DNA of 39,761 nt from Dehalococcoidia bacterium (GTDB lineage Bacteria > Chloroflexota > Dehalococcoidia > Bin125). The position numbers and the translations under genes are program-made. The DNA is taken from contig JAJDZG010000097.1 of the NCBI GenBank assembly GCA_022824765.1, positions 1 to 39,761 of the forward strand, written 5' to 3'. Every line of letters starts with the position of its first letter. The first letter of the stretch is position 1. Positions 6 through 39,718 of the stretch are shown one piece after another. The notes beneath the pieces are model-generated. The model saw only the letters and a list, made by a program, of their open reading frames with translations. It searched no databases and was not told where the DNA came from.

Positions 6-119
6 CCCCGTGCTTGACCCGAGTCCCCGTGCTTGACACGAGTCCCCGTGCTTGACACGAGTCCCCGTGCTTGACCCGAGTCCCCGTGCTTGACACGAGT
101 CCCCGTGCTTGACACGGGG
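6..119. repeat. Six-unit 19-bp tandem repeat array, hairpin-forming
   Basis: Six contiguous 19-bp units (starts at 6, 25, 44, 63, 82, 101) with consensus CCCCGTGCTTGACACGAGT and no spacers. Units 1 and 4 read GACCC where units 2, 3, 5 and 6 read GACAC, so the array is two copies of a three-unit, 57-bp higher-order repeat. The last unit ends CACGGGG and is a perfect inverted repeat: a 7-bp CCCCGTG/CACGGGG stem with a CTTGA loop. Each unit contains TTGACA or TTGACC. The array may extend beyond the window's left edge. Function unknown; it could be an intergenic satellite or a transcription terminator of an upstream gene. Confidence 0.9.
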
Positions 120-17490: not shown

Positions 17491-17586
17491 GCTGAGGGAA
17501 CTCTAGGTGATCGAGTCGTGGTCGAGCTTGGCCGTCACTTGGCGGTACGCTCGTACGAACGGCAATCACCAGTGTGGGAGATGGTC

Positions 17587-18759
17587 ATGGTTCGACCAAC
17601 CAGCGCCGCTGAGAATCTTGGCACGGAGACGGCGTTCGAGGTACTTGCGCGGGCCAACAAGCTCGCGGCCGAGGGACGCTCAATCATCAATCTCGGCATC
17701 GGACAGCCCGACTTCTCCACCCCCGACAACATCGTCAGCGCCGGCGAGCGCGCGCTGGCCGAAGGCAGGCACGGATATACCCCCGGCGCCGGCATCCCGG
17801 AGCTGCGCGAGGCCGTCGCTCGCGACCTGGAACGTCGTCACGGAGCGTCGGTCGACGCGGGCAGCGTGCTGGTCACGCCAGGCGCCAAGCCAGTCATGTT
17901 CTTCGCCGCACTGCTGATGGGCGAGCCCGGCGTCGAGATCATGTACCCCAACCCTGGCTTCCCCATCTACGAATCGGTGATTCGCTTCTCCGGCGCGACG
18001 CCAGTGCCGATCGAGCTCCACGAGGCGAGCGGTTTCACCTTCGATCCCGACCAGGTGCTGTCCCAGATCAACGAGCGCACGCGCCTGATCATCCTCAACA
18101 GCCCAGCCAACCCCACCGGCGGCGTCTACACACGCGACCAGGTCGAACGCCTCGTCGCAGGCCTCGAGCAGTGGCCCAACGTCGTTGTCCTCAGCGACGA
18201 GATCTACTCGCGCATCCTCTACGACGGTCGCGAACACGTGTCCTGGCTCAACTATCCCCAGCTGCGCGATCGCCTGATCGTGCTCGACGGCTGGAGCAAG
18301 ACCTACGCGATGACCGGCTGGCGGCTGGGCTATGGCGTCTTCCCGCCCGATCTGTTCCCGTACGCCGAGCGGCTCGCAATCAACAGCTACAGCTGTCCCA
18401 ACGCCGCGACGCAGTACGCAGCGATCGAGGCCCTCGACGGTCCCCAGGAGGCGGTCGACATCATGACCACCGCCTTCGACGAACGCCGCGTGGCGATCGT
18501 GCGCGAGCTCAACGATGTGCCCGGCGTTAGCTGTGTCAATCCCGGCGGCGCCTTCTACGCCTTCCCCAACATCTCGGAAACGGGCATCGACGCGCGGACG
18601 CTGCAGCATCGGCTGCTCGAGGAAGCAGGCGTGGCGGTCATCGCCGGAACCAGCTTTGGACATCTCGGCGAGGGCTACCTGCGCTTCAGCTATGCCGCGT
18701 CGCTGGAGGAGATCATCGAAGGCGTCGACCGAATGCGTACCCTGTTGGCAAACAGCTAA
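17587..18759 (+). CDS. Class I/II PLP-dependent aminotransferase (AspC/MalY-like fold type I)
   Basis: 390 aa. LGIGQPDFSTPDN at the N-terminus, GYTPGAGIPELREAV, NSPANPTGGVY, and the lysine that forms the PLP Schiff base, Lys238 in GWSKTYAMTGWRLGY, are all typical of aspartate/alanine-type aminotransferases. Two ATGs are close (17581 and 17587); GGGAG at 17575-17579 is better spaced for 17587. The frame opens earlier at 17518 without similarity. Specificity (aspartate, aromatic or branched) cannot be told. The OsmC-family gene follows 58 bases downstream on the same strand and may share transcription. Confidence 0.92.
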   Translation: MVRPTSAAENLGTETAFEVLARANKLAAEGRSIINLGIGQPDFSTPDNIVSAGERALAEGRHGYTPGAGIPELREAVARDLERRHGASVDAGSVLVTPGAKPVMFFAALLMGEPGVEIMYPNPGFPIYESVIRFSGATPVPIELHEASGFTFDPDQVLSQINERTRLIILNSPANPTGGVYTRDQVERLVAGLEQWPNVVVLSDEIYSRILYDGREHVSWLNYPQLRDRLIVLDGWSKTYAMTGWRLGYGVFPPDLFPYAERLAINSYSCPNAATQYAAIEALDGPQEAVDIMTTAFDERRVAIVRELNDVPGVSCVNPGGAFYAFPNISETGIDARTLQHRLLEEAGVAVIAGTSFGHLGEGYLRFSYAASLEEIIEGVDRMRTLLANS

Positions 18760-18801: not shown

Positions 18802-18808
18802 GGAGGGG
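18802..18808 (+). promoter_or_regulatory. Ribosome binding site GGAGGGG of the OsmC-family gene
   Basis: GGAGGGG lies nine bases before the ATG at 18818 and decides the start of the OsmC-family selenoprotein candidate. There is no comparable Shine-Dalgarno in front of the internal ATG at 19013, which would be the start if the second half were an independent gene. Confidence 0.7.
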
Positions 18809-18817
18809 ATCCGAGAA

Positions 18818-19282
18818 ATGCCCAGGTTCGAATACATCTCCCGCAACAAGCTCGAACTCAAGGACGGCTTCCGACACGCCACCTTGGGCGACGTCCCCGA
18901 GCCCGTCGTCTACGGCGTACAGGGCAAGCTCAAGCAACACTACGGCGTCCCCGAGGACGCGCCGCCGATGACGGCCACGCTCGACCACATCGTCGCCGCG
19001 GTCGGCGGTTGAATGTACGGCACGCTCGCGCGGGCGTTGTCCGCGCGCAAGGTCGAGTTCGACCCCAACACCTACACCGCCGACGTCCTGGGCACGATCG
19101 AGGGCGAGGACAACCAGACCATTCGGATCACAAAGATCCACGTCATCTTCCACATCCCCGGCATCAAGGACGAGCATCGAGCCGCCGCAAAGCGGGCCGT
19201 CAAGTTCCACGCGGCCGGTTGTCCCGCCCACGAGAGCGTGAAAGACGCCATTGAAATCACCCACGAAGCGGTCTATCACTAA
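18818..19282 (+). CDS. OsmC-family protein with in-frame TGA at the peroxidatic cysteine (candidate selenoprotein)
   Basis: Reading through one TGA at 19010-19012 gives one 154-aa protein of normal OsmC length. Both halves are in the same frame, with the second beginning at the very next codon. The N-terminal half ends DHIVAAVGG and the second half starts MYGTLARAL, matching the family's helix that carries the first reactive cysteine, so the TGA would encode Sec65 there. The second conserved cysteine is intact as Cys135 in HAAGCPAHESV. OsmC/Ohr proteins reduce organic hydroperoxides through this Cys pair. A hairpin of SECIS type follows the TGA (separate entry). The alternative is a nonsense mutation of TGC/TGT to TGA, but intact flanking codons and the hairpin argue against it. 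SelA, SelB, SelC and SelD are not in the window, so Sec decoding is unproven here. Confidence 0.85.
19027..19047 (+). promoter_or_regulatory. Candidate bacterial SECIS hairpin
   Basis: In the mRNA, CGCGCGG (19027-19033) pairs perfectly with CCGCGCG (19041-19047). Inside it, G34-U40 wobble and C35-G39 extend the stem to nine pairs, closing a three-base loop GUU at 19036-19038. The stem begins 14 bases after the TGA and the loop lies 23 bases after it. Bacterial SECIS elements sit inside the coding region just 3' of UGA, with a small apical loop having a G among its first bases, and a UGA-to-loop distance of roughly 16-37 bases; all are met. The region is GC-rich, so a chance hairpin is possible. 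Confidence 0.7.
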
Positions 19283-19521
19283 TCCAGCGGTCGTCGCGCG
19301 TTCCAGATCACCTCTTTGGGCAGCGGCGCCGGCTGCGGACGCGGCGCTGAAACCGGCCGATTCGAGAGATCGCCCGTCGTGATGTCGATGAAGTCGTCGA
19401 GCGTCAGCGGCTTGCCGCCGATCGTGAAGCGCGCGCTGGAAGAGATGGGAAACTCCCGATCGGGAGCTTCTTCTTGCGCGTCTTCTTGCGCGACTTCGAC
19501 GGTTGAGTCCTGCTCGGCCAT
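19279..19521 (-). CDS. Small acidic hypothetical protein
   Basis: 80 aa, no family recognised. The N-terminal 28 residues are acidic (EVAQEDAQEEAPDREFP) and probably disordered. A compact segment follows (SARFTIGGKPLTLDDFIDI), and a proline-rich tail (PRPQPAPLPKE) ends in WNARRPLD. It converges on the OsmC-family gene, with stop codons overlapping, and is divergent from the RibD-C gene across 22 bases. Coding is supported by clean start and stop placement in the gap and by the conserved-looking core, but there is no direct proof. Confidence 0.6.
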   Translation of the reverse strand: MAEQDSTVEVAQEDAQEEAPDREFPISSSARFTIGGKPLTLDDFIDITTGDLSNRPVSAPRPQPAPLPKEVIWNARRPLD

Positions 19522-33241: not shown

Positions 33242-34351
33242 TCAGCCCGTCCGGCGTCGACGTAGCACCACCACTGAGAAACCTGCCAGCACCAACCCGA
33301 TCAGCAGTCCCCCCGCAACCACGTACCACCCAGTCGCCCCGCCGTCCCCGGACAGCAATCCACCAGTTCCGGTTCCTGGAGGCGACTGTGGACTCACCGT
33401 CCCACCTCTGGACTCGACCGTTTGCTCGTCCGAAGTAGTAGACGTCGTGTCGTCATCCTCGTCATCCGCAGCCTCGTCGTCAGGATCATCGGCGTCCTCA
33501 TCATCCGAAGTGTCATCGTCAGAGGTGTCGTCGTCAGGGTCATCATCGCCCGGCGGATCGTCATCACCCGGCGGATCATCGCCCGGCGGGTCATCATCAC
33601 CCGGTGGATCGTCGCCCGGCGGGTCGTCATCACCCGGCGGATCGTTACCCGGCGGGTCATCATCACCTGGCGGGTCGTCACCCGGCGGGTCGTCATCGCC
33701 CGGAGGATCATCACCCGGCGGGTCATCATCACCCGGCGGGTCGTCATCACCCGGCGGGTCGTCATCACCCGGCGGATCATCGCCCGGCGGGTCATCATCG
33801 CCCGGCGGGTCATCATCGCCTGGCGGATCGCCGACGGGCGGATCGTCATCGCCCGGTGGAGCGTTCCCATCGGGCGGATTCGTCGGCGGATCGTCGTCCT
33901 TCGTCGGAGGTTGCTGTTTGCTCACCTCAAGCTCAATATTGACCGTACATCGATTCCACTGACGCTCAGCCTGCCGACCGCCCACAAAGAACGTCGCGTC
34001 GCAGACCCCCTTCTCCAGCAGCTCCGCATCCACACGCAACGACCAGTTGCCCTCCTGATTGCTCACCTGACTCCGAGCGATCACCGTCTCACGGACCCGA
34101 ATCTCGACGCTCGTCCCCTTCGGCGCCGGCGATCCATCCACGATCGCCCGACCCTCGAAGCGGTACACCCGCACCGGTTCCTGAGCACCGGCGTCCGACG
34201 CCGCGAGCAGCGCAACGAGCACGGCCATCACCAGACCGATGACCAGCCAGCGCGCCCGACCCAGAGTGGACAGCGAAGAGTTCTGAACCGTCTGAACCGT
34301 CTCGACCGATTTCACCGCTCGCCCCACAGACTCTGACCGCTCGTCGTGCAC
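33242..34351 (-). CDS. Surface protein with PPGDD repeat stalk and C-terminal membrane anchor
   Basis: 369 aa from a GTG codon. The N-terminal stretch ends in a hydrophobic segment WLVIGLVMAVLVALLAA, a signal or anchor. Residues about 58-155 form a beta-rich, Ig-like or carboxypeptidase-regulatory-like domain (YRFEGRAIVDGSPAPKG, SLRVDAELLEKG) with two cysteines. Residues about 165-275 are an acidic stalk built of PPGDD/PPGDDD units, then an Asp/Glu-rich segment. The C-terminal helix GWYVVAGGLLIGLVLAGF is followed by VVVLRRRRTG. Topology: anchored with the domain outside. Downstream of it on the same strand lies the ABC exporter. The start could be further in; no good Shine-Dalgarno is visible. 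Confidence 0.8.
   Translation of the reverse strand: MHDERSESVGRAVKSVETVQTVQNSSLSTLGRARWLVIGLVMAVLVALLAASDAGAQEPVRVYRFEGRAIVDGSPAPKGTSVEIRVRETVIARSQVSNQEGNWSLRVDAELLEKGVCDATFFVGGRQAERQWNRCTVNIELEVSKQQPPTKDDDPPTNPPDGNAPPGDDDPPVGDPPGDDDPPGDDDPPGDDPPGDDDPPGDDDPPGDDDPPGDDPPGDDDPPGDDPPGDDDPPGNDPPGDDDPPGDDPPGDDDPPGDDPPGDDDPPGDDDPDDDTSDDDTSDDEDADDPDDEAADDEDDDTTSTTSDEQTVESRGGTVSPQSPPGTGTGGLLSGDGGATGWYVVAGGLLIGLVLAGFSVVVLRRRRTG
33540..33850. repeat. PPGDD-encoding tandem repeat tract
   Basis: About 310 bases of imperfect tandem repeats with core words CCCGGCGG and GGGTCATCATC, encoding PPGD, PPGDD and PPGDDD units (12, 15 or 18 bases) in the minus-strand surface protein gene. Unit changes are whole codons, so the frame survives expansion and contraction. 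On the opposite strand the same tract reads as SPGGSS-type repeats, a shadow frame. Length variation between strains is likely. Confidence 0.85.
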
Positions 34352-34572: not shown

Positions 34573-35913
34573 ATGACCTTCGACGAAGCACTCCGAGATC
34601 GACTCACGACCGAGTTCGGCGACGGCGCACGCCGGACGACCTCCGACGGCGCCGCAGCGCTGGCCTGGAGGCTCGGCGAATTCGACCTGCTCTGGCACAG
34701 CGCCGCCTCCGACACCGCGCTGCGCCAGACCTGGGGCGAGCGCAAGAATCGCGGACCCCGTCCGCTCGTCCTCGTGGCACCGATGTCCGACCCGGCCAAG
34801 ATCCGCGTCTGCGGACCGCAGCATCCACAGCCGATCCGCGAACTCCCCATCGAGCCGCTGCTGCGCATCCTGCGTGAGGCAGCAGCACTGCACTTCAACG
34901 AGGCCGCCCAGACGCTGTCAGGCGGGTTCGACCGACTCGAACGCGCCGCCCTGCCCGGACTCCGCGTCAAGGAACTGCTCACGCCCCACTTCGTGCGCGA
35001 ACGGCTGCGACCTCGACGCGCCCGGCTGGCCGAAACCATCGCCGACGTGACCGACGCCGACGCCCGCGCCTGGAGCACGCTCTTCCGAACGCTCGGCTAC
35101 GCCGCCGAGCAGCTGCCGCGACGCGGACACCTGCTGCGCGACGAGCAGGACCCGCACGGCTCTCCAATAGCAGTGGTGCATCCCTCCAACGATCCCGACG
35201 CCTTCGGACAGCTCACCGCCGACGGCGCCCTGCCCGAAGGACTCCTGCTCGCCGACTGCGAACGTCACGGCGCCGCCTGGGGCATTCTCGCCGCGGGCGG
35301 ACGCTACCGACTCTTCCAGCGTCGACCCGAATCGGGCGCCGCCGGCGGACAGTACCTCGAGATCGACGCCAACGACCTCAAGGGCGACAGCCGCTTCTGC
35401 CTCGGTCTGCTCTCGCCTCCGTCGCTGCGCGATCACGGCTGGCTCGAAGACTGGGCCCGTGAGGCGCGCGACTTCGGCGAGGAACTGCGCAAGGGACTCG
35501 AGGACCGACTGATCCGCGACGTCCTGCCCTCCGTCGCGCGCGGACTCGGCGAGCACCTCGAGTCCGAGGCAGTCGATCCCGGCGCGCCGGAGCAGCTGGA
35601 ACGGATCGGCGAGGCCGCGCTCACGCTCGTCTTCCGGTTCATGTTCCTGCTCCACGTCGAGGCGCGCGGATTCCTGCCCGTCAACGGCACCGTCTACAGC
35701 CGACGCAGCGCCACCAGCCTCGCCCGCGAGTGCCACGACGCCCTCGCCTCAGGACCCGCCGACCGCAACTCCACTCGCATCTGGGACGACCTCAGCACCC
35801 TCGTCGGCATGATCCGGCGCGGCGACTCCGACGCCGGCGTGCCCGCCTACAACGGTCAGCTCTTCGCCGCCGAAGGCTTCCCCGGCAGCTCCCGAAAAAC
35901 TGCCGCGGAGTGA
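34573..35913 (+). CDS. Truncated type IIG restriction-modification protein (N-terminal part, Eco57I-like)
   Basis: 446 aa, but full-length members of this family are about 1000 aa or more. The region FRFMFLLHVEARGFLPVN and GVPAYNGQLFAAEGFPGSS is the stretch that precedes the adenine-methyltransferase domain in Eco57I-type RM enzymes (the family word is VPAYNGGLF). The frame then ends SSRKTAAE and a stop, with no methylase motifs I or NPPY. A C-terminal piece of the same kind lies at 38393-38539. The gap between the two pieces holds a helicase and an IS5 remnant. The protein is probably inactive. Weak purine-rich AGAGGA at 34556 precedes the start. Confidence 0.75.
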   Translation: MTFDEALRDRLTTEFGDGARRTTSDGAAALAWRLGEFDLLWHSAASDTALRQTWGERKNRGPRPLVLVAPMSDPAKIRVCGPQHPQPIRELPIEPLLRILREAAALHFNEAAQTLSGGFDRLERAALPGLRVKELLTPHFVRERLRPRRARLAETIADVTDADARAWSTLFRTLGYAAEQLPRRGHLLRDEQDPHGSPIAVVHPSNDPDAFGQLTADGALPEGLLLADCERHGAAWGILAAGGRYRLFQRRPESGAAGGQYLEIDANDLKGDSRFCLGLLSPPSLRDHGWLEDWAREARDFGEELRKGLEDRLIRDVLPSVARGLGEHLESEAVDPGAPEQLERIGEAALTLVFRFMFLLHVEARGFLPVNGTVYSRRSATSLARECHDALASGPADRNSTRIWDDLSTLVGMIRRGDSDAGVPAYNGQLFAAEGFPGSSRKTAAE

Positions 35914-35968: not shown

Positions 35969-38071
35969 ATGCAACATCTCGATCCTTCCCAACTGTCATT
36001 TGTCCAGGCGCCGGCTGGCCACATTCGACTGCTCGCACCGGCAGGCTGCGGCAAGACACACACACTCCTCGCCCGGTGCGCCCATTTGTCAGAGCAAGCT
36101 CCCGTCCTGGGTCCTATGCCAACGTTTCTCATCGTCTCATTCACCACAGCGGCCAGCAAGGAACTTCAGAGCCGTCTCAATGTAGGCGGCCATTCACTCC
36201 CTCCCAGATCCCAGACCGAGATCCGCACCCTCAACTCCTGGGGGTGGCGCCGCTTCTCGCCCGCAAGAAACGCCCCTCACTTGGTTGTCCGTCAACATGA
36301 ACAAGCCACAGCAGCCAAGACCGTGCTGGGCGATCTTTGCACCCAGCACGACGCCGTGCATGGCGCGCTGTCCAGTCAACGTCTGACATACCTCTCCCTC
36401 CTGAGACTCATCGATGAATTCAAATCGCTCGCCTTTATTCATAAGCGCCACACCGATTATCAATCCTTTCGCACTCACGTAAACGACCTCAAACAACAGG
36501 GGCACAGCGCGTATCTCAGTCGCAAACTCGCCCAATCTCTCAAGGATGGCGGCATCCTCAGGAACGAACACCTTGTCGACCTGTACCCCAGTATCTTTTC
36601 CCGCTTCTACCGCTTCTGGCTTGCCGCCGTTCCTGCCCTCGCTGAGGCCGGATACTTCACCTTCGAAGACCAAAAGTACTTCGCGCTTCTGGACGAACTC
36701 AACCTACTAACTGAGTTCTCAACCAGTGGCCCTCCTCCCACTTATGACCATATTCTCGTGGACGAATTTCAAGACATCAACCCACTTGACTTGCGCTTGA
36801 TCAAAGCGATACGAGAGCGAACAAGCGCGACTATGACAAATGTCGGCGACGATGACCAAGCGATATACGAGTGGCGAGCAGGAACGCCCGAGTACATTCT
36901 GAACCCTGATAAGATATTCCAGATACCGTTTGAGACGAAGATTCTCCAGGTAAACTACCGGTCCCCTTTGAACATGATCCGCATGTCCCAACGGCTGATA
37001 TCCCACAACAAGCGTAGAGTGCCGAAACAGACCCAAGCTCAACTCTCGCCCCCCGATGATGCAACGATCGAGGTGATCAGCCCCACCGGGGACATCGACT
37101 CACTCCATGAACTCGCCCTCCTACGTGACGACGCGATCCGCAAAGGAACAGATCCAACTCGGATCGCAATCCTCACCAGAAGAACCGACCAGCTGGTCAA
37201 CCCTCAGATTTACTTCATGACGGAGCGGATACACATTGCAGTTGCGCAAGACCAACAGCTCACCACCAGCGACAGCTACGGAGCCCTGCTGGAGCTTCTC
37301 CAGATCAAGGCGGAGGCGGGGTACCCAAAGAGACTCCTTGAGGCTCGAAACGCTGTACTCAGTCTGTTACGCGGCGCTTTGGCACACCGAGTCGGCCGGC
37401 AAGGGCGCAATCGGATCAGAGGTATACTGCCAAGGCAAGGATCTATCTCAGTAGAGGATGCTGTCTCATTGCTAGCCGATCACTTCGACTCGGGCCATGG
37501 CGCTTCGCTCGATGAGCGCCAACTACAGAACGCGACGATAGCGGCCGAGGACTTCATTGAATCTAAGAGCGTTGTGGATGCTCTAGGTTGCTTGGAGCAA
37601 AGCTTCGAAATGTTCAAAGAAGACCGCGAAGGAGGGGTTGAAGATATCTTTCGAGCCGCCCCACCCTTCGAGCATCTGATGTCCCATGCTCATCGGTTTG
37701 GCAAGGATTCTGGCGCATTTGTCAATTTTCTTGAGGACTCTGCTAAGACCTACGTGCATGATATCGCCAGTGGGGAGCACGACGTCGAGAGACAATCATC
37801 AAATCGCGAGTTACGAGCCATTCGGATGATGACTGCGCATCGGGCGAAGGGAAGGGAGTTCGACTTTGTGATTCTGCCAGATGTCGTTGATGGGATCTGG
37901 CCTAGTGGAAGGAACGAGACGATAGAAGAGAAAGAAGGAGAGCGTCGCGTGTTCTACGTGGCATTCACGCGCGCGCGAAAGCGGGTCTCCATAGTAGTCA
38001 ATCGAGATCGTGGTTCGGCGCAATCGCCATATGTTGCTGAGTTGGGGCTACCACAGGAGATATCCGAATGA
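35969..38071 (+). CDS. UvrD/Rep-type superfamily 1A DNA helicase
   Basis: 700 aa. Motifs are in order: Walker A APAGCGKT (residues about 24-31), Ia FTTAASKEL, II VDEFQD near 259, III GDDDQAIYEWRAG, IV VNYRS, V MTAHRAKGREFDFV near 620 and VI VFYVAFTRARKR near 660. This is a UvrD/PcrA-like 3'-5' helicase, shorter and more divergent than housekeeping UvrD; it could serve phage defence or DNA repair. The gene is much richer in A/T than its flanks and splits the restriction-modification gene, so it is likely foreign. There is no nuclease domain or adjacent partner gene, which argues against a complete Gabija-like pair. Confidence 0.93.
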   Translation: MQHLDPSQLSFVQAPAGHIRLLAPAGCGKTHTLLARCAHLSEQAPVLGPMPTFLIVSFTTAASKELQSRLNVGGHSLPPRSQTEIRTLNSWGWRRFSPARNAPHLVVRQHEQATAAKTVLGDLCTQHDAVHGALSSQRLTYLSLLRLIDEFKSLAFIHKRHTDYQSFRTHVNDLKQQGHSAYLSRKLAQSLKDGGILRNEHLVDLYPSIFSRFYRFWLAAVPALAEAGYFTFEDQKYFALLDELNLLTEFSTSGPPPTYDHILVDEFQDINPLDLRLIKAIRERTSATMTNVGDDDQAIYEWRAGTPEYILNPDKIFQIPFETKILQVNYRSPLNMIRMSQRLISHNKRRVPKQTQAQLSPPDDATIEVISPTGDIDSLHELALLRDDAIRKGTDPTRIAILTRRTDQLVNPQIYFMTERIHIAVAQDQQLTTSDSYGALLELLQIKAEAGYPKRLLEARNAVLSLLRGALAHRVGRQGRNRIRGILPRQGSISVEDAVSLLADHFDSGHGASLDERQLQNATIAAEDFIESKSVVDALGCLEQSFEMFKEDREGGVEDIFRAAPPFEHLMSHAHRFGKDSGAFVNFLEDSAKTYVHDIASGEHDVERQSSNRELRAIRMMTAHRAKGREFDFVILPDVVDGIWPSGRNETIEEKEGERRVFYVAFTRARKRVSIVVNRDRGSAQSPYVAELGLPQEISE

Positions 38072-38129: not shown

Positions 38130-38392
38130 ATCTCCATCCGGCCGCAGCCAGCGCCCATAACGACCGCCGCCGGCGCAGCGCGATCGGCGGCCGCACAACT
38201 CGTCATCCCGGTTACCGCCAGAGTCAGCGGCCGCGCAAGCTGGTCGAGGAAGAGTTCGGTTGGATCAAGACCGACGGCGCGGGCGGCAAGCTGCGCTATC
38301 TGGGCCGGGCCCGCAACAAGCTCTGGCTCGAACTGACCGCCGTCGCCTACAACCTCACCCGCCTGGCCAACATCGAAGCCGCAGCCGCATAG
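38130..38392 (+). pseudogene. IS5-family transposase remnant (C-terminal end)
   Basis: One frame reads HNDRRRRRSAIGGRTTRHPGY, then RKLVEEEFGWIKTDGAGGKL, RYLGRARNKLWLELTAVAYN and LTRLANIEAAAA before TAG at 38390. This is the C-terminal end of IS5-type DDE transposases (RSAIDGRTTRHPGYAVSQRxRKxxEExFGWxKT). The catalytic N-terminal part, first Asp residues, start codon and terminal inverted repeats are absent. It lies right after the UvrD gene and directly before a piece of the broken RM gene, so it may have mediated the insertion. Confidence 0.85.
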
Positions 38393-38539
38393 CCCGACCG
38401 AGCGGAGACGGCCTCAGACGCCGTCGCCCACGGCTACGGCCTCAGCGTCGACGAGCTGCGCTTCATCTTCGACGACTTCACCCTCGACGCCGTCCCCCAG
38501 CGCTTCCGCGAACAGGTGATCGCCCACTTCGAGTCGTGA
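38393..38539 (+). pseudogene. C-terminal fragment of the type IIG restriction-modification gene
   Basis: The frame after the transposase stop reads DAVAHGYGLSVDELRFIFD, then DFTLDAVPQRFREQVIAHFES and a TGA at 38537. Eco57I-like RM/methyltransferase proteins end with just such a segment (AxAYGLxxDELRxILDDF). It fits as the missing tail of the truncated gene at 34573-35913, in the same orientation, about 2.5 kb downstream. Homology cannot be proved without alignment to a complete family member. Confidence 0.6.
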
Positions 38540-38586
38540 GCGTCGCGAGAGTCTCGATAGACTGGACCCAACGGGAGGATCACGAC

Positions 38587-39144
38587 ATGACCACCACCCA
38601 GACCGGGCTGCTCACCGCCGCCGACCTCCTCCGCCTCTCAGCGAACGGTTTCCGCGGCGAACTCGTGCGAGGAGTCCTGAGAGAAACCATGCCAGCAGGA
38701 CAACGACACGGAAAAATCGTCTCAAGACTCAACTTTCAGCTGGGCCTGCACGTCTACCCGCAGCGGTTGGGCACGCTGGTTGCCTCAGATTCAGGAGTCC
38801 TGATCGAGCGCGGTCCAGACACCGTGCGAGAGCCAGACATCGGCTTCACGTCGGTCGAGCGTATGCCGCTTGGGGAGGAGCTAGACACATACGCCGAGGC
38901 GGTGCCAAATCTCGTCGTCGAGGTTGCCTCGCCCAACGATTCACGCAGCTATCCAGCCGAGCGCTCCGAGATGTGGCTCTCGGCCGGTGCGCAGCTGGTC
39001 TGGTTCGTCCACCCCGAAACCCGCAGCATTGACGTCTACCGCACCGACCAGCCAATGATCACGATCAGCGGAGACGAGCCGCTCGACGGCCAGGACGTCC
39101 TGCCAAGTTTCAGCTGCCACCTCACCGACATCTTCGACGAGTAG
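38587..39144 (+). CDS. Uma2 family endonuclease, copy 1
   Basis: 185 aa. Uma2 (DUF820) proteins have a PD-(D/E)xK nuclease-like fold and are numerous in Chloroflexota and cyanobacteria. Family words: GFRGELVRGVLRETM, ASDSGVLIERGPDTVREPDI, then NLVVEVASPND and GAQLVWFVHPETRSIDVYR. The REPD and VEV-SPND pair fits the nuclease-type acidic residues. GGGAGG precedes the start. It is followed 16 bases later by copy 2. The biological role of Uma2 proteins is not settled. Confidence 0.88.
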   Translation: MTTTQTGLLTAADLLRLSANGFRGELVRGVLRETMPAGQRHGKIVSRLNFQLGLHVYPQRLGTLVASDSGVLIERGPDTVREPDIGFTSVERMPLGEELDTYAEAVPNLVVEVASPNDSRSYPAERSEMWLSAGAQLVWFVHPETRSIDVYRTDQPMITISGDEPLDGQDVLPSFSCHLTDIFDE

Positions 39145-39160
39145 CAGGGAGCAACACCCC

Positions 39161-39718
39161 ATGACCACGACGCAGACCGGGCTGCTCACCGCCGACGACC
39201 TCCTCCGCCTCTCAGCCGAGGGCTTCCGCGGCGAACTCGTGCGAGGAATGCTACGAGAAACTATGGCAACCAATCGGGAACACGGATTCATCGTCGTAAA
39301 TCTTGCCACCGAGTTGCGCAACTTTGTCAAGCCGCGCCGACTCGGCTCCATCGTCGCCTCCGACTCCGGTGTGCGGCTCGAGCGCGGCCCCGACACGGTC
39401 CGCGAGCCAGACGTCGCGTACACCTCGTTCGAACGGCAGCCGCGCGGCGCCAACCGAACCAGCTACGCCGAAGTCGTGCCAGACATTGTCGTCGAGGTCG
39501 CCTCGCCCAACGATCAACGCAACTATCCGGCCGAGCGCTCCGAGATGTGGCTCTCCCACGGCGTCCAACTCGTCTGGTTCGTCCACCCCGAAACCCGCAG
39601 CATCGACGTCTACCGCACCGACCAGCCAATGATCACGATCAGCGGAGACGAGCCGCTCGACGGCCAGGACGTCCTGCCCGGCTTCAGCTGCCACCTCACC
39701 GACATCTTCGACGAGTAG
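39161..39718 (+). CDS. Uma2 family endonuclease, copy 2
   Basis: 185 aa, same length and layout as copy 1. The first 35 residues and the final 60 or so (from PAERSEMWLS to HLTDIFDE) are nearly identical, down to the DNA, while the middle (about residues 36-115) has many changes: ATNREHGFIVVNLATELRNF against AGQRHGKIVSRLNFQLGLHV in copy 1. The REPDVAYTS and DIVVEVASPNDQRN words are kept. GCAGGGAGCAACACCCC lies upstream as a repeated leader, also found before copy 3. Confidence 0.9.
   Translation: MTTTQTGLLTADDLLRLSAEGFRGELVRGMLRETMATNREHGFIVVNLATELRNFVKPRRLGSIVASDSGVRLERGPDTVREPDVAYTSFERQPRGANRTSYAEVVPDIVVEVASPNDQRNYPAERSEMWLSHGVQLVWFVHPETRSIDVYRTDQPMITISGDEPLDGQDVLPGFSCHLTDIFDE

What the first reader, a model, noticed from the sequence alone, without database searches (positions are those of the whole stretch)
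18818..19282. OsmC-family gene reads through an in-frame TGA at its reactive-cysteine position: probable selenoprotein
Two apparent ORFs lie in the same frame with only TGA between them. Joined, they give a 154-aa OsmC-like protein with the TGA at codon 65, in AVGG-[TGA]-MYGTLARAL, exactly where OsmC/Ohr proteins have their peroxidatic Cys. The resolving Cys135 is present. Selenocysteine there would raise peroxidase reactivity. Sec-containing OsmC-like proteins were, to my recollection, predicted in marine metagenome selenoproteome surveys, so the family may not be new, but this locus would be mis-split by standard gene callers.
Basis: partly seen in the sequence, partly recalled or inferred. 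Interest (0 to 1): 0.93.

Follow-up and report, generated by a model that had tools for sequence, protein, structure and literature searches.

The report
Selenocysteine-containing OsmC-like peroxidase subfamily
A bacterial gene that looks broken by a stop codon is most likely read through by inserting the rare amino acid selenocysteine at its predicted active site, and the same arrangement recurs in related genes of several bacterial phyla, so it appears to be an overlooked second group of selenium-using OsmC-type enzymes.

Summary
In detail: window 18818-19282 (+) is one 154-codon OsmC-family frame with TGA at codon 65 (19010-19012). The selenoprotein reading is strongly supported. The genome carries tRNA-Sec(UCA), SelA, SelB and SelD. 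TGA sits at the same column in 79 of the 80 best relatives of a genome scan; the other has TGC. In 296 genomes of Rubrobacter's phylum, 29 of 31 TGA-form genomes have SelA, against 0 of 4 Cys-form genomes. A hairpin meeting the four criteria of the published bacterial SECIS model starts 14 nt after the TGA; relatives keep a stem-loop one codon further on. The fold is OsmC/Ohr. OsmC-like selenoproteins with UxxT are in print and appear to be NCBIfam NF041052. This gene is not of that type: 21 bits against 95, UxxG motif, separate clade. It is a second OsmC selenoprotein subfamily; I found no subfamily model and no paper on it in the library searched. Not shown: selenium in the protein, peroxidase activity, and whether Sec arose once or twice (AU tests undecided).

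The parts
18818..19282 (+). OsmC-family selenoprotein gene, 154 codons, read through one in-frame TGA, ends TAA
   Evidence: (PF02566 42.1 bits)
19010..19012 (+). TGA codon 65, proposed Sec codon at the peroxidatic Cys position
   Evidence: TGA at this column in 79 of 80 relatives; aligned to Cys in L044/L132 and in 6 genes of four genomes of Rubrobacter's phylum
19027..19047 (+). SECIS-like hairpin: stem 19027-19035 / 19039-19047 (9 bp), loop GUU 19036-19038, spacing 23 nt from the TGA, -16.4 kcal/mol for the isolated hairpin
   Evidence: criteria from PMC13188914 (passages)
19220..19222 (+). codon for Cys135 (TGT), predicted resolving Cys, followed by Pro
   Evidence: Cys135 invariant in the 30 rows of A1 and present in 78 of 80 genome-contig loci (not aligned in the broken L097 and L110); aligned to the CP site of 1ukk and 2pn2 (weak E-values)
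18802..18808 (+). Shine-Dalgarno-like GGAGGGG upstream of the ATG
   Evidence: by eye
17518..18759 (+). aminotransferase gene (PF00155), upstream neighbour kept within the genus only
   Evidence: tblastn match (E<=1e-6) in 14 of 14 genus loci and in none of the other 66 loci

Best explanation
The gene encodes a 154-residue OsmC/Ohr-fold protein in which UGA 65 is decoded as selenocysteine by SelB with Sec-tRNA(UCA), directed by the stem-loop at 19027-19047. Sec65 takes the place of the peroxidatic Cys. By analogy with Ohr/OsmC it would attack an (organic) hydroperoxide, and the resulting selenenic acid would be resolved by Cys135 and reduced by a thiol donor. The read-through frame, the machinery, the conserved UGA, the hairpin and the fold are shown by computation. 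Sec insertion follows strongly by inference, and the confidence given is for that. Peroxidase activity, substrate and reductant are inferred from the superfamily only (about 0.65). It belongs to a subfamily (U-[ML]-x-G, usually C-P) separate from the published UxxT type, found by record title in Chloroflexota, Rokubacteria, Actinomycetota, Acidobacteriota and other groups.
For: Genome: tRNA-Sec UCA (RF01852 66.4 bits; ARAGORN), SelA 523 bits, SelB 347 bits with its neighbours in the frame, SelD 352 bits, itself with one in-frame TGA. TGA at the column: 79 of 80 genome-contig loci; 28 of 29 loci of the phylum sample. SelA in 33 of 37 host genomes (37 of the 80 loci, chosen by me for spread), 32 over the cut-off. 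Sample of 296 genomes of Rubrobacter's phylum: 35 with the family; SelA at E<=1e-40 in 29 of 31 TGA-form and 0 of 4 Cys-form genomes, 185 of 296 overall. Hairpin: 58 to 64 of 64 non-genus sequences pair at each of seven positions; one pair is G-C in 34, C-G in 22, A-U in 1, G-U in 1. 27 further TGA sequences pair 6.04 of 7 on average, against 1.67-3.74 in slid controls. The window hairpin meets all four model criteria; 0.2% of 7234 codons in window genes have one as stable. AF2 pLDDT 93.8; the 50 Foldseek PDB rows printed are OsmC/Ohr by title, or hypothetical, putative or untitled entries.
Against: The window's 55-nt segment folds only slightly better than its shuffles (z -1.23; 27 of 200 as good). 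The general SECIS model is met at 13.5% of codons of window genes, 7.1% with G[G/U], so meeting it is weak by itself. The genus hairpin is one codon nearer the TGA than in other relatives, so two registers must be accepted, and L059 has loop AAU without an early G. The covarying pair rests on few independent changes. Two TGA-form genomes (G703, G704) and 4 of 37 host genomes show no SelA match, completeness unknown; G095 has only a weak one. G303 has TGG (Trp) at the column although it has SelA. L193 and L194 pair only 2 and 1 of 7. The four Cys-form genomes are not independent (one clade). Function: PDB sequence matches are weak (best E 0.021), and PMC4069020 (title and start of abstract) reports an organic-peroxide resistance protein without thiol peroxidase activity.
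Confidence: 0.93

Rival explanations
1. Two separate ORFs or a decayed gene: the TGA is a true stop, with re-initiation at the overlapping ATG (TGAATG) or no function.
For: The window has an ATG directly after the TGA and 64- and 89-codon pieces. Two of 80 relatives, L097 and L110, are broken downstream, and G662 has a frame break after the TGA.
Against: TGA at one column in 79 of 80 relatives of several phyla, nearly all with open frames on both sides. In much of the family the next codon is CTG, CTC, CTT or CTA, so re-start is not the conserved feature. In the model of the read-through protein column 65 lies inside one helix, H54-76.
Confidence: 0.02
2. UGA is read as another residue (Cys or Trp) by a suppressor tRNA or a changed code, not as Sec.
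For: Cys homologues exist; TGG occurs once at the column (G303).
Against: TGA ends 15 of 31 window ORFs. The UCA tRNA matches tRNA-Sec at 66.4 bits and SelA, SelB and SelD are present. The TGA form goes with SelA (29 of 31) and the Cys form with its absence (0 of 4).
Confidence: 0.03
3. It is simply another member of the published UxxT OsmC-like selenoprotein family (NF041052).
For: Same superfamily, with Sec at the aligned column and a second Cys; an AU test does not reject both selenoprotein groups as one clade (p 0.196).
Against: 21 bits against a cut-off of 95. Among 30 members the best NF041052 E-value is 9.5e-6, and 13 of 30 match at E<=0.01. Motif UxxG, not UxxT; C-P as in classical OsmC. 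Separate clade, 100/98. Four sampled genomes carry both.
Confidence: 0.12
4. Sec protein, but not a peroxidase: a thiol/selenol redox carrier, or a sulfur- or electrophile-handling enzyme on the OsmC fold.
For: Long stem branch (2.07 changes per column) and weak similarity to solved Ohr/OsmC; not all proteins linked to organic-peroxide resistance are thiol peroxidases (PMC4069020, title and start of abstract).
Against: Sec65, Cys135 and the fold match the peroxidase arrangement; an Arg at position 19 is nearly invariant.
Confidence: 0.3

Closest known systems
OsmC-like selenoprotein, UxxT (Sargasso Sea 2005, GOS 2008; NCBIfam NF041052 OsmC_like_Se)
   Same: OsmC superfamily, predicted Sec at the aligned active-site column, second Cys, mostly TGA form (25 of 26 matches over the cut-off; TGA column seen in 24 of the 25 fetched)
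   Different: Motif mostly F-U-[LM]-L-T and C-[HYF] second site, against U-[ML]-x-G and mostly C-P here; not recognised by the model (21 against 95 bits); separate clade. That the published sequences are NF041052 members is my inference from the motif and the model's name.
OsmC / Ohr thiol peroxidases (PF02566)
   Same: Fold (Foldseek E 3e-8 to 8e-6 in the rows printed), catalytic-Cys column and the C-P site (1ukk, 2pn2, E 0.036 and 0.077), Pfam above cut-off
   Different: Sec instead of the peroxidatic Cys; 10-19% identity to the structural matches printed; Asp56 stands near where Ohr has its Glu (placement by eye and recall, not tested)
Bacterial selenoproteins with a bSECIS hairpin (for example SelD; FdhF by recall)
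   Same: UGA, hairpin just downstream, SelA/SelB/tRNA-Sec/SelD
   Different: Other host protein family; the hairpin sits in two registers in different clades

Membership tests
bacterial selenoprotein | in-frame UGA conserved at one column, with Cys in some homologues | tested here: met
bacterial selenoprotein | tRNA-Sec, SelA, SelB and SelD in the same genome | tested here: met
bacterial selenoprotein | bSECIS hairpin (loop 3-9 nt, stem 4-16 bp, G in the first two loop positions, spacing 16-37 nt, <= -7.5 kcal/mol) | tested here: met
   loop GUU, 9 bp, spacing 23, -16.4 (model read in passages). 13.5% of codons in window genes meet the model, 7.1% with G[G/U]; 0.2% have a hairpin as stable.
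bacterial selenoprotein | Se actually in the protein | not testable with these tools
   needs 75Se labelling or mass spectrometry
OsmC/Ohr superfamily (PF02566) | profile score over the cut-off and fold | tested here: met
   42.1 against 27.5 bits; Foldseek
OsmC/Ohr superfamily (PF02566) | peroxidatic and resolving chalcogen residues | tested here: met
   column 65 (TGA written as C) and Cys135 invariant in A1; aligned to the Cys and CP of 1ukk and 2pn2 (weak E-values)
OsmC/Ohr superfamily (PF02566) | catalytic Arg and Glu of Ohr (PMC5962072, start of abstract in listing) | tested here: inconclusive
   R19 nearly invariant, D56 invariant; geometry not examined
OsmC/Ohr superfamily (PF02566) | hydroperoxide reductase activity | not testable with these tools
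   biochemistry needed
NF041052 OsmC_like_Se (UxxT) | score over the cut-off of 95 | tested here: not met
   21 bits; no match in G000 at E<=0.001 by genome search
NF041052 OsmC_like_Se (UxxT) | UxxT motif | tested here: not met
   UMYG here, U[LM]xG in the relatives
NF041052 OsmC_like_Se (UxxT) | one clade with it | tested here: inconclusive
   tree separates them; AU p 0.196

The most novel reading that the evidence does not exclude
This is a Sec-first peroxidase family: selenocysteine is the ancestral state, carried widely over bacterial phyla, and the Cys versions are reversions in lineages that lost the Sec machinery, with decayed SECIS remnants. Pairing in the SECIS dictates the residue at Sec+11 (Ala, Gly or Val), so the RNA element shapes the protein.
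Probability: 0.55. Interest if true: 0.68.

Novelty: new variant of a known kind. Interest (0 to 1): 0.57.

Why it matters
It adds a second OsmC selenoprotein subfamily, present in at least six phylum-level groups by record titles. I found no model specific to it: Pfam gives only the general PF02566 for the window gene, and NCBIfam gives only weak matches over 30 members (best E 2.7e-6). I found no paper on it in the library. A gene caller that does not know the family would see two short ORFs (not tested). Because the Sec form predominates and hosts with named genomes exist (Rubrobacter taiwanensis, L103; Ktedonobacteria brp13, L082), it gives a testable system for why a hydroperoxide-type enzyme keeps selenium, and for what happens to enzyme and SECIS when the Sec machinery is lost.

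Tried and rejected
Considered and rejected: two coupled ORFs, gene decay, sequencing error, changed genetic code or suppressor tRNA, plain membership in NF041052 (see rivals).

Led nowhere or did not help the case: PDB profile search at E<=0.001 gave no hit. Folding of the window's own segment against shuffles is weak. Gene neighbourhood is conserved only within the genus and says nothing on function. AU tests do not settle Sec-to-Cys reversion (p 0.089) or the number of Sec origins (p 0.196). Rfam (gathering threshold) and ARAGORN found nothing in the window. The SelD SECIS of the same genome allows two hairpins and was not used. One script crashed and printed nothing; its pair counts were rerun without the alignment-folding scan. 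Paper searches on selenocysteine with Chloroflexi (52 papers), selenoprotein with NCBIfam (4) and selenoprotein with sponge and Chloroflexi (3) gave listings that I did not follow beyond two papers. One of these, on Chloroflexi SepRS/SepCysS (PMC5424206), was read in passages for a UGA-as-Cys rival; the term UGA does not occur in its text.

Full report
OBSERVATION. Window 18818-19282 (+) reads as one frame of 154 codons with a single TGA at codon 65 (19010-19012) and a TAA stop. Pfam OsmC spans the TGA (residues 56-150, 42.1 bits, cut-off 27.5). It is the only PF02566 match in the genome at E<=0.001. A GGAGGGG sits upstream of the ATG (by eye).

SEC MACHINERY. The window's assembly (G000, 2.35 Mb, 171 contigs, 92% complete) has a tRNA-Sec with anticodon UCA (66.4 bits; ARAGORN), SelA (523 bits), SelB (347 bits with its neighbours in the frame) and SelD (352 bits), which itself carries an in-frame TGA in the motif NCGGUGSKFG. 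By record titles of the 14 relatives at 84-93% identity it is a Dehalococcoidia/Chloroflexota organism. TGA is otherwise a stop: 15 of 31 window ORFs that I chose end in it.

CONSERVATION OF THE TGA. A genome-contig scan with alignment A1 found 293 relatives and kept the best 80; the other 213 were not seen. Of these 80, 79 have TGA at the column and one (L132) TGC. One of the two search patterns, as printed, requires Cys at this column, so the scan was not biased towards TGA. Two of the 80 (L097, L110) are broken downstream of the TGA; the other 78 have Cys at column 135. In a sample of 400 genomes of the phylum, 37 have the family at E<=1e-5, with 41 matches. Of the 29 loci aligned with the window, 28 have TGA and one (L044, the same gene as L132) TGC. 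Three more matches were fetched: G387 and G205 have TGA, G303 has TGG, Trp. The remaining matches were not checked by codon. By record title the hosts include Dehalococcoidia and other Chloroflexota, Ktedonobacteria, Rokubacteria, Rubrobacter and other Actinomycetota, Acidobacteriota, Gemmatimonadota, KSB1 and Desulfobacterales; bin labels such as 'Bacillota' may be wrong.

SEC/CYS AND SELA. SelA is common in the window's phylum (331 of 400 at E<=0.001, 321 over the cut-off), so its presence in the 37 positive genomes (36 strong, G095 only 7e-5) is weak evidence there. The phylum of Rubrobacter taiwanensis (Actinomycetota; the tool does not name it) is a sharper test. Among 296 genomes the family occurs in 35 at E<=1e-10 and SelA at E<=1e-40 in 185. 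The 31 genomes with the TGA form include 29 with SelA (not G703, G704). The four with the Cys form (G450, G514, G525, G578; six genes, TGC or TGT checked) include none. TGA was checked by codon in 30 of the 31; the 31st, G662, has it before a frame break. By my own arithmetic the chance of 0 of 4 is about 3e-4, but the six Cys genes are one clade, so this is not four independent events. Of 37 host genomes of named loci (37 of the 80, chosen for spread), 33 have a SelA match, 32 over the cut-off. In 12 genomes searched with PF02566, the printed matches with a TGA belong to this family or to NF041052 and the other OsmC rows have none.

SECIS. In the window a 9-bp stem with loop GUU begins 14 nt after the TGA (19027-19047; spacing 23 nt to the loop, -16.4 kcal/mol). 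It meets all four criteria of the bacterial SECIS model printed in PMC13188914 (passages). The model is met at 13.5% of 7234 in-frame codons of 16 window genes, 7.1% with G[G/U], but a hairpin as stable occurs at only 0.2%. Against its own shuffles the segment is unremarkable (z -1.23). In 64 non-genus TGA sequences (15 genus rows, the Cys row L132 and the broken L110 left out) the hairpin lies one codon further downstream; the loop is GGC, GGA or GTC in 56 of 64. Its seven pairs hold in 58 to 64 of 64, and the pair at offsets 23/31 is G-C 34, C-G 22, A-U 1, G-U 1. That pair has the highest covariation of all pairs at least 90% paired in the 54 nt. The 3' partner is the second base of codon Sec+11, so the residue there (Ala, Gly or Val) goes with the wobble base of the codon at Sec+8. 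Most of the switch is one event: all 22 C-G rows are Rokubacteria, Ktedonobacteria or near Chloroflexota, the six rows of that group in the tree form one clade, and the A-U row (L073) lies inside it (read by eye). In 27 further distinct TGA sequences not used to define the stem, 6.04 of 7 pairs form on average, against 1.67-3.74 for slid versions. The six Cys genes form 3 to 6 pairs (mean 4.0); none of their loops (GAA, CAA three times, CGC, GCT) has G followed by G or U, though three keep a G in the first two places. L132 (Cys) forms 5 pairs with loop GAT, and the Trp row L184 forms 6 with loop GGA. L193 and L194 are TGA rows that do not fit this register. In the genus the 13 distinct sequences (of 15) keep the nearer hairpin, loop GTT 7, GAT 5, AAT 1.

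FOLD AND ACTIVE SITE. AlphaFold2 on A1, with Cys standing for Sec, gives pLDDT 93.8, pTM 0.86. The 50 printed Foldseek PDB rows are OsmC/Ohr proteins by title, or hypothetical, putative or untitled entries. Weak profile alignments to 1ukk (E 0.036) and 2pn2 (E 0.077) place column 65 on their Cys and Cys135 on their CP site. Invariant in A1 are column 65, Cys135, Pro136, Asp56, Arg77 and Arg126; Arg19 is nearly so. Ohr has an Arg and a Glu in its active site (PMC5962072, start of abstract in the listing); whether Arg19 and Asp56 play these parts was not tested. A peroxidase that forms a selenenic acid resolved by Cys135 is therefore an inference.

RELATION TO WHAT IS KNOWN. OsmC-like selenoproteins were predicted from the Sargasso Sea (3 sequences, UxxT; PMC1088965, passages) and GOS (UxxT; PMC2398784, passages), and are listed as UxxT in two reviews (PMC9312934, PMC13188914; passages). 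The NCBIfam model NF041052 finds such proteins: 26 of 400 phylum genomes over its cut-off, 25 of the 26 with one TGA. In the 25 fetched, 24 have it in mostly F-U-[LM]-L-T, with ULAT, UTLS, ULIS and UMLS variants, and one (G293) has Cys. The window gene scores 21 against 95. 13 of 30 A1 members match it at E<=0.01, best E 9.5e-6. Here the motif is U-[ML]-x-G, usually with C-P at the second site. G036, G071, G293 and G317 hold both families. A 128-row tree puts this family in one clade (78 rows, 100/98, stem 2.07) apart from NF041052 (in a 100/100 clade with one long-branched Cys row), with Cys OsmC groups on both sides. The Cys members fall inside the TGA members there. AU tests, however, reject neither the TGA rows as a clade without the Cys and Trp rows (p 0.089) nor the two selenoprotein groups as one clade (p 0.196), and long branches are present. 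Paper searches for OsmC with selenoprotein (7 papers), OsmC with selenocysteine (10), organic hydroperoxide resistance with selenocysteine (7), and Rubrobacter with selenoprotein (5) showed no UxxG OsmC selenoprotein in what I read. Most listed papers were seen only as listings; in PMC1794560, which counts selenoproteins of Rubrobacter xylanophilus, the term OsmC does not occur (passages). Subscription journals are mostly missing from the library.

VERDICT. Very likely a real selenoprotein gene, of a second OsmC selenoprotein subfamily: new variant of a known kind. Peroxidase function is likely but unproved, evolutionary direction open.

Noticed in passing
window 6-116: Tandem array of a 19-bp unit (5.8 copies, 96% match) at the contig end.
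   Followed up: no
window 33242-34351 (-): 369-aa protein without a Pfam match, with a long Pro-Gly-Asp-Asp-rich repeat (18/33/51-bp DNA periods) and, by eye, hydrophobic stretches near both ends; perhaps a surface protein.
   Followed up: partly
window 38260-39718 (+): Two adjacent ORFs whose proteins look alike by eye, the second a Uma2 putative restriction endonuclease (PF05685).
   Followed up: no
window 34573-35913 and 35969-38071 (+): A protein of 446 aa without a Pfam match directly before a UvrD-type helicase; perhaps a two-gene repair or defence unit (guess).
   Followed up: no
window 19279-19521 (-): 80-aa ORF convergent with the selenoprotein gene and overlapping its stop in the window; matched in all 14 genus loci (64-93% identity, further away in L065), no Pfam match.
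   Followed up: partly
L048 1501-2442: SelD of the same genome is itself read through a TGA in NCGGUGSKFG.
   Followed up: partly
L184 (G303): Relative with TGG (Trp) at the Sec column although its genome has SelA; the hairpin pairs 6 of 7. A recent loss or an assembly error.
   Followed up: partly
L082 and L086 (Ktedonobacteria brp13): Two TGA-form copies of the gene about 20 kb apart in one complete genome.
   Followed up: no
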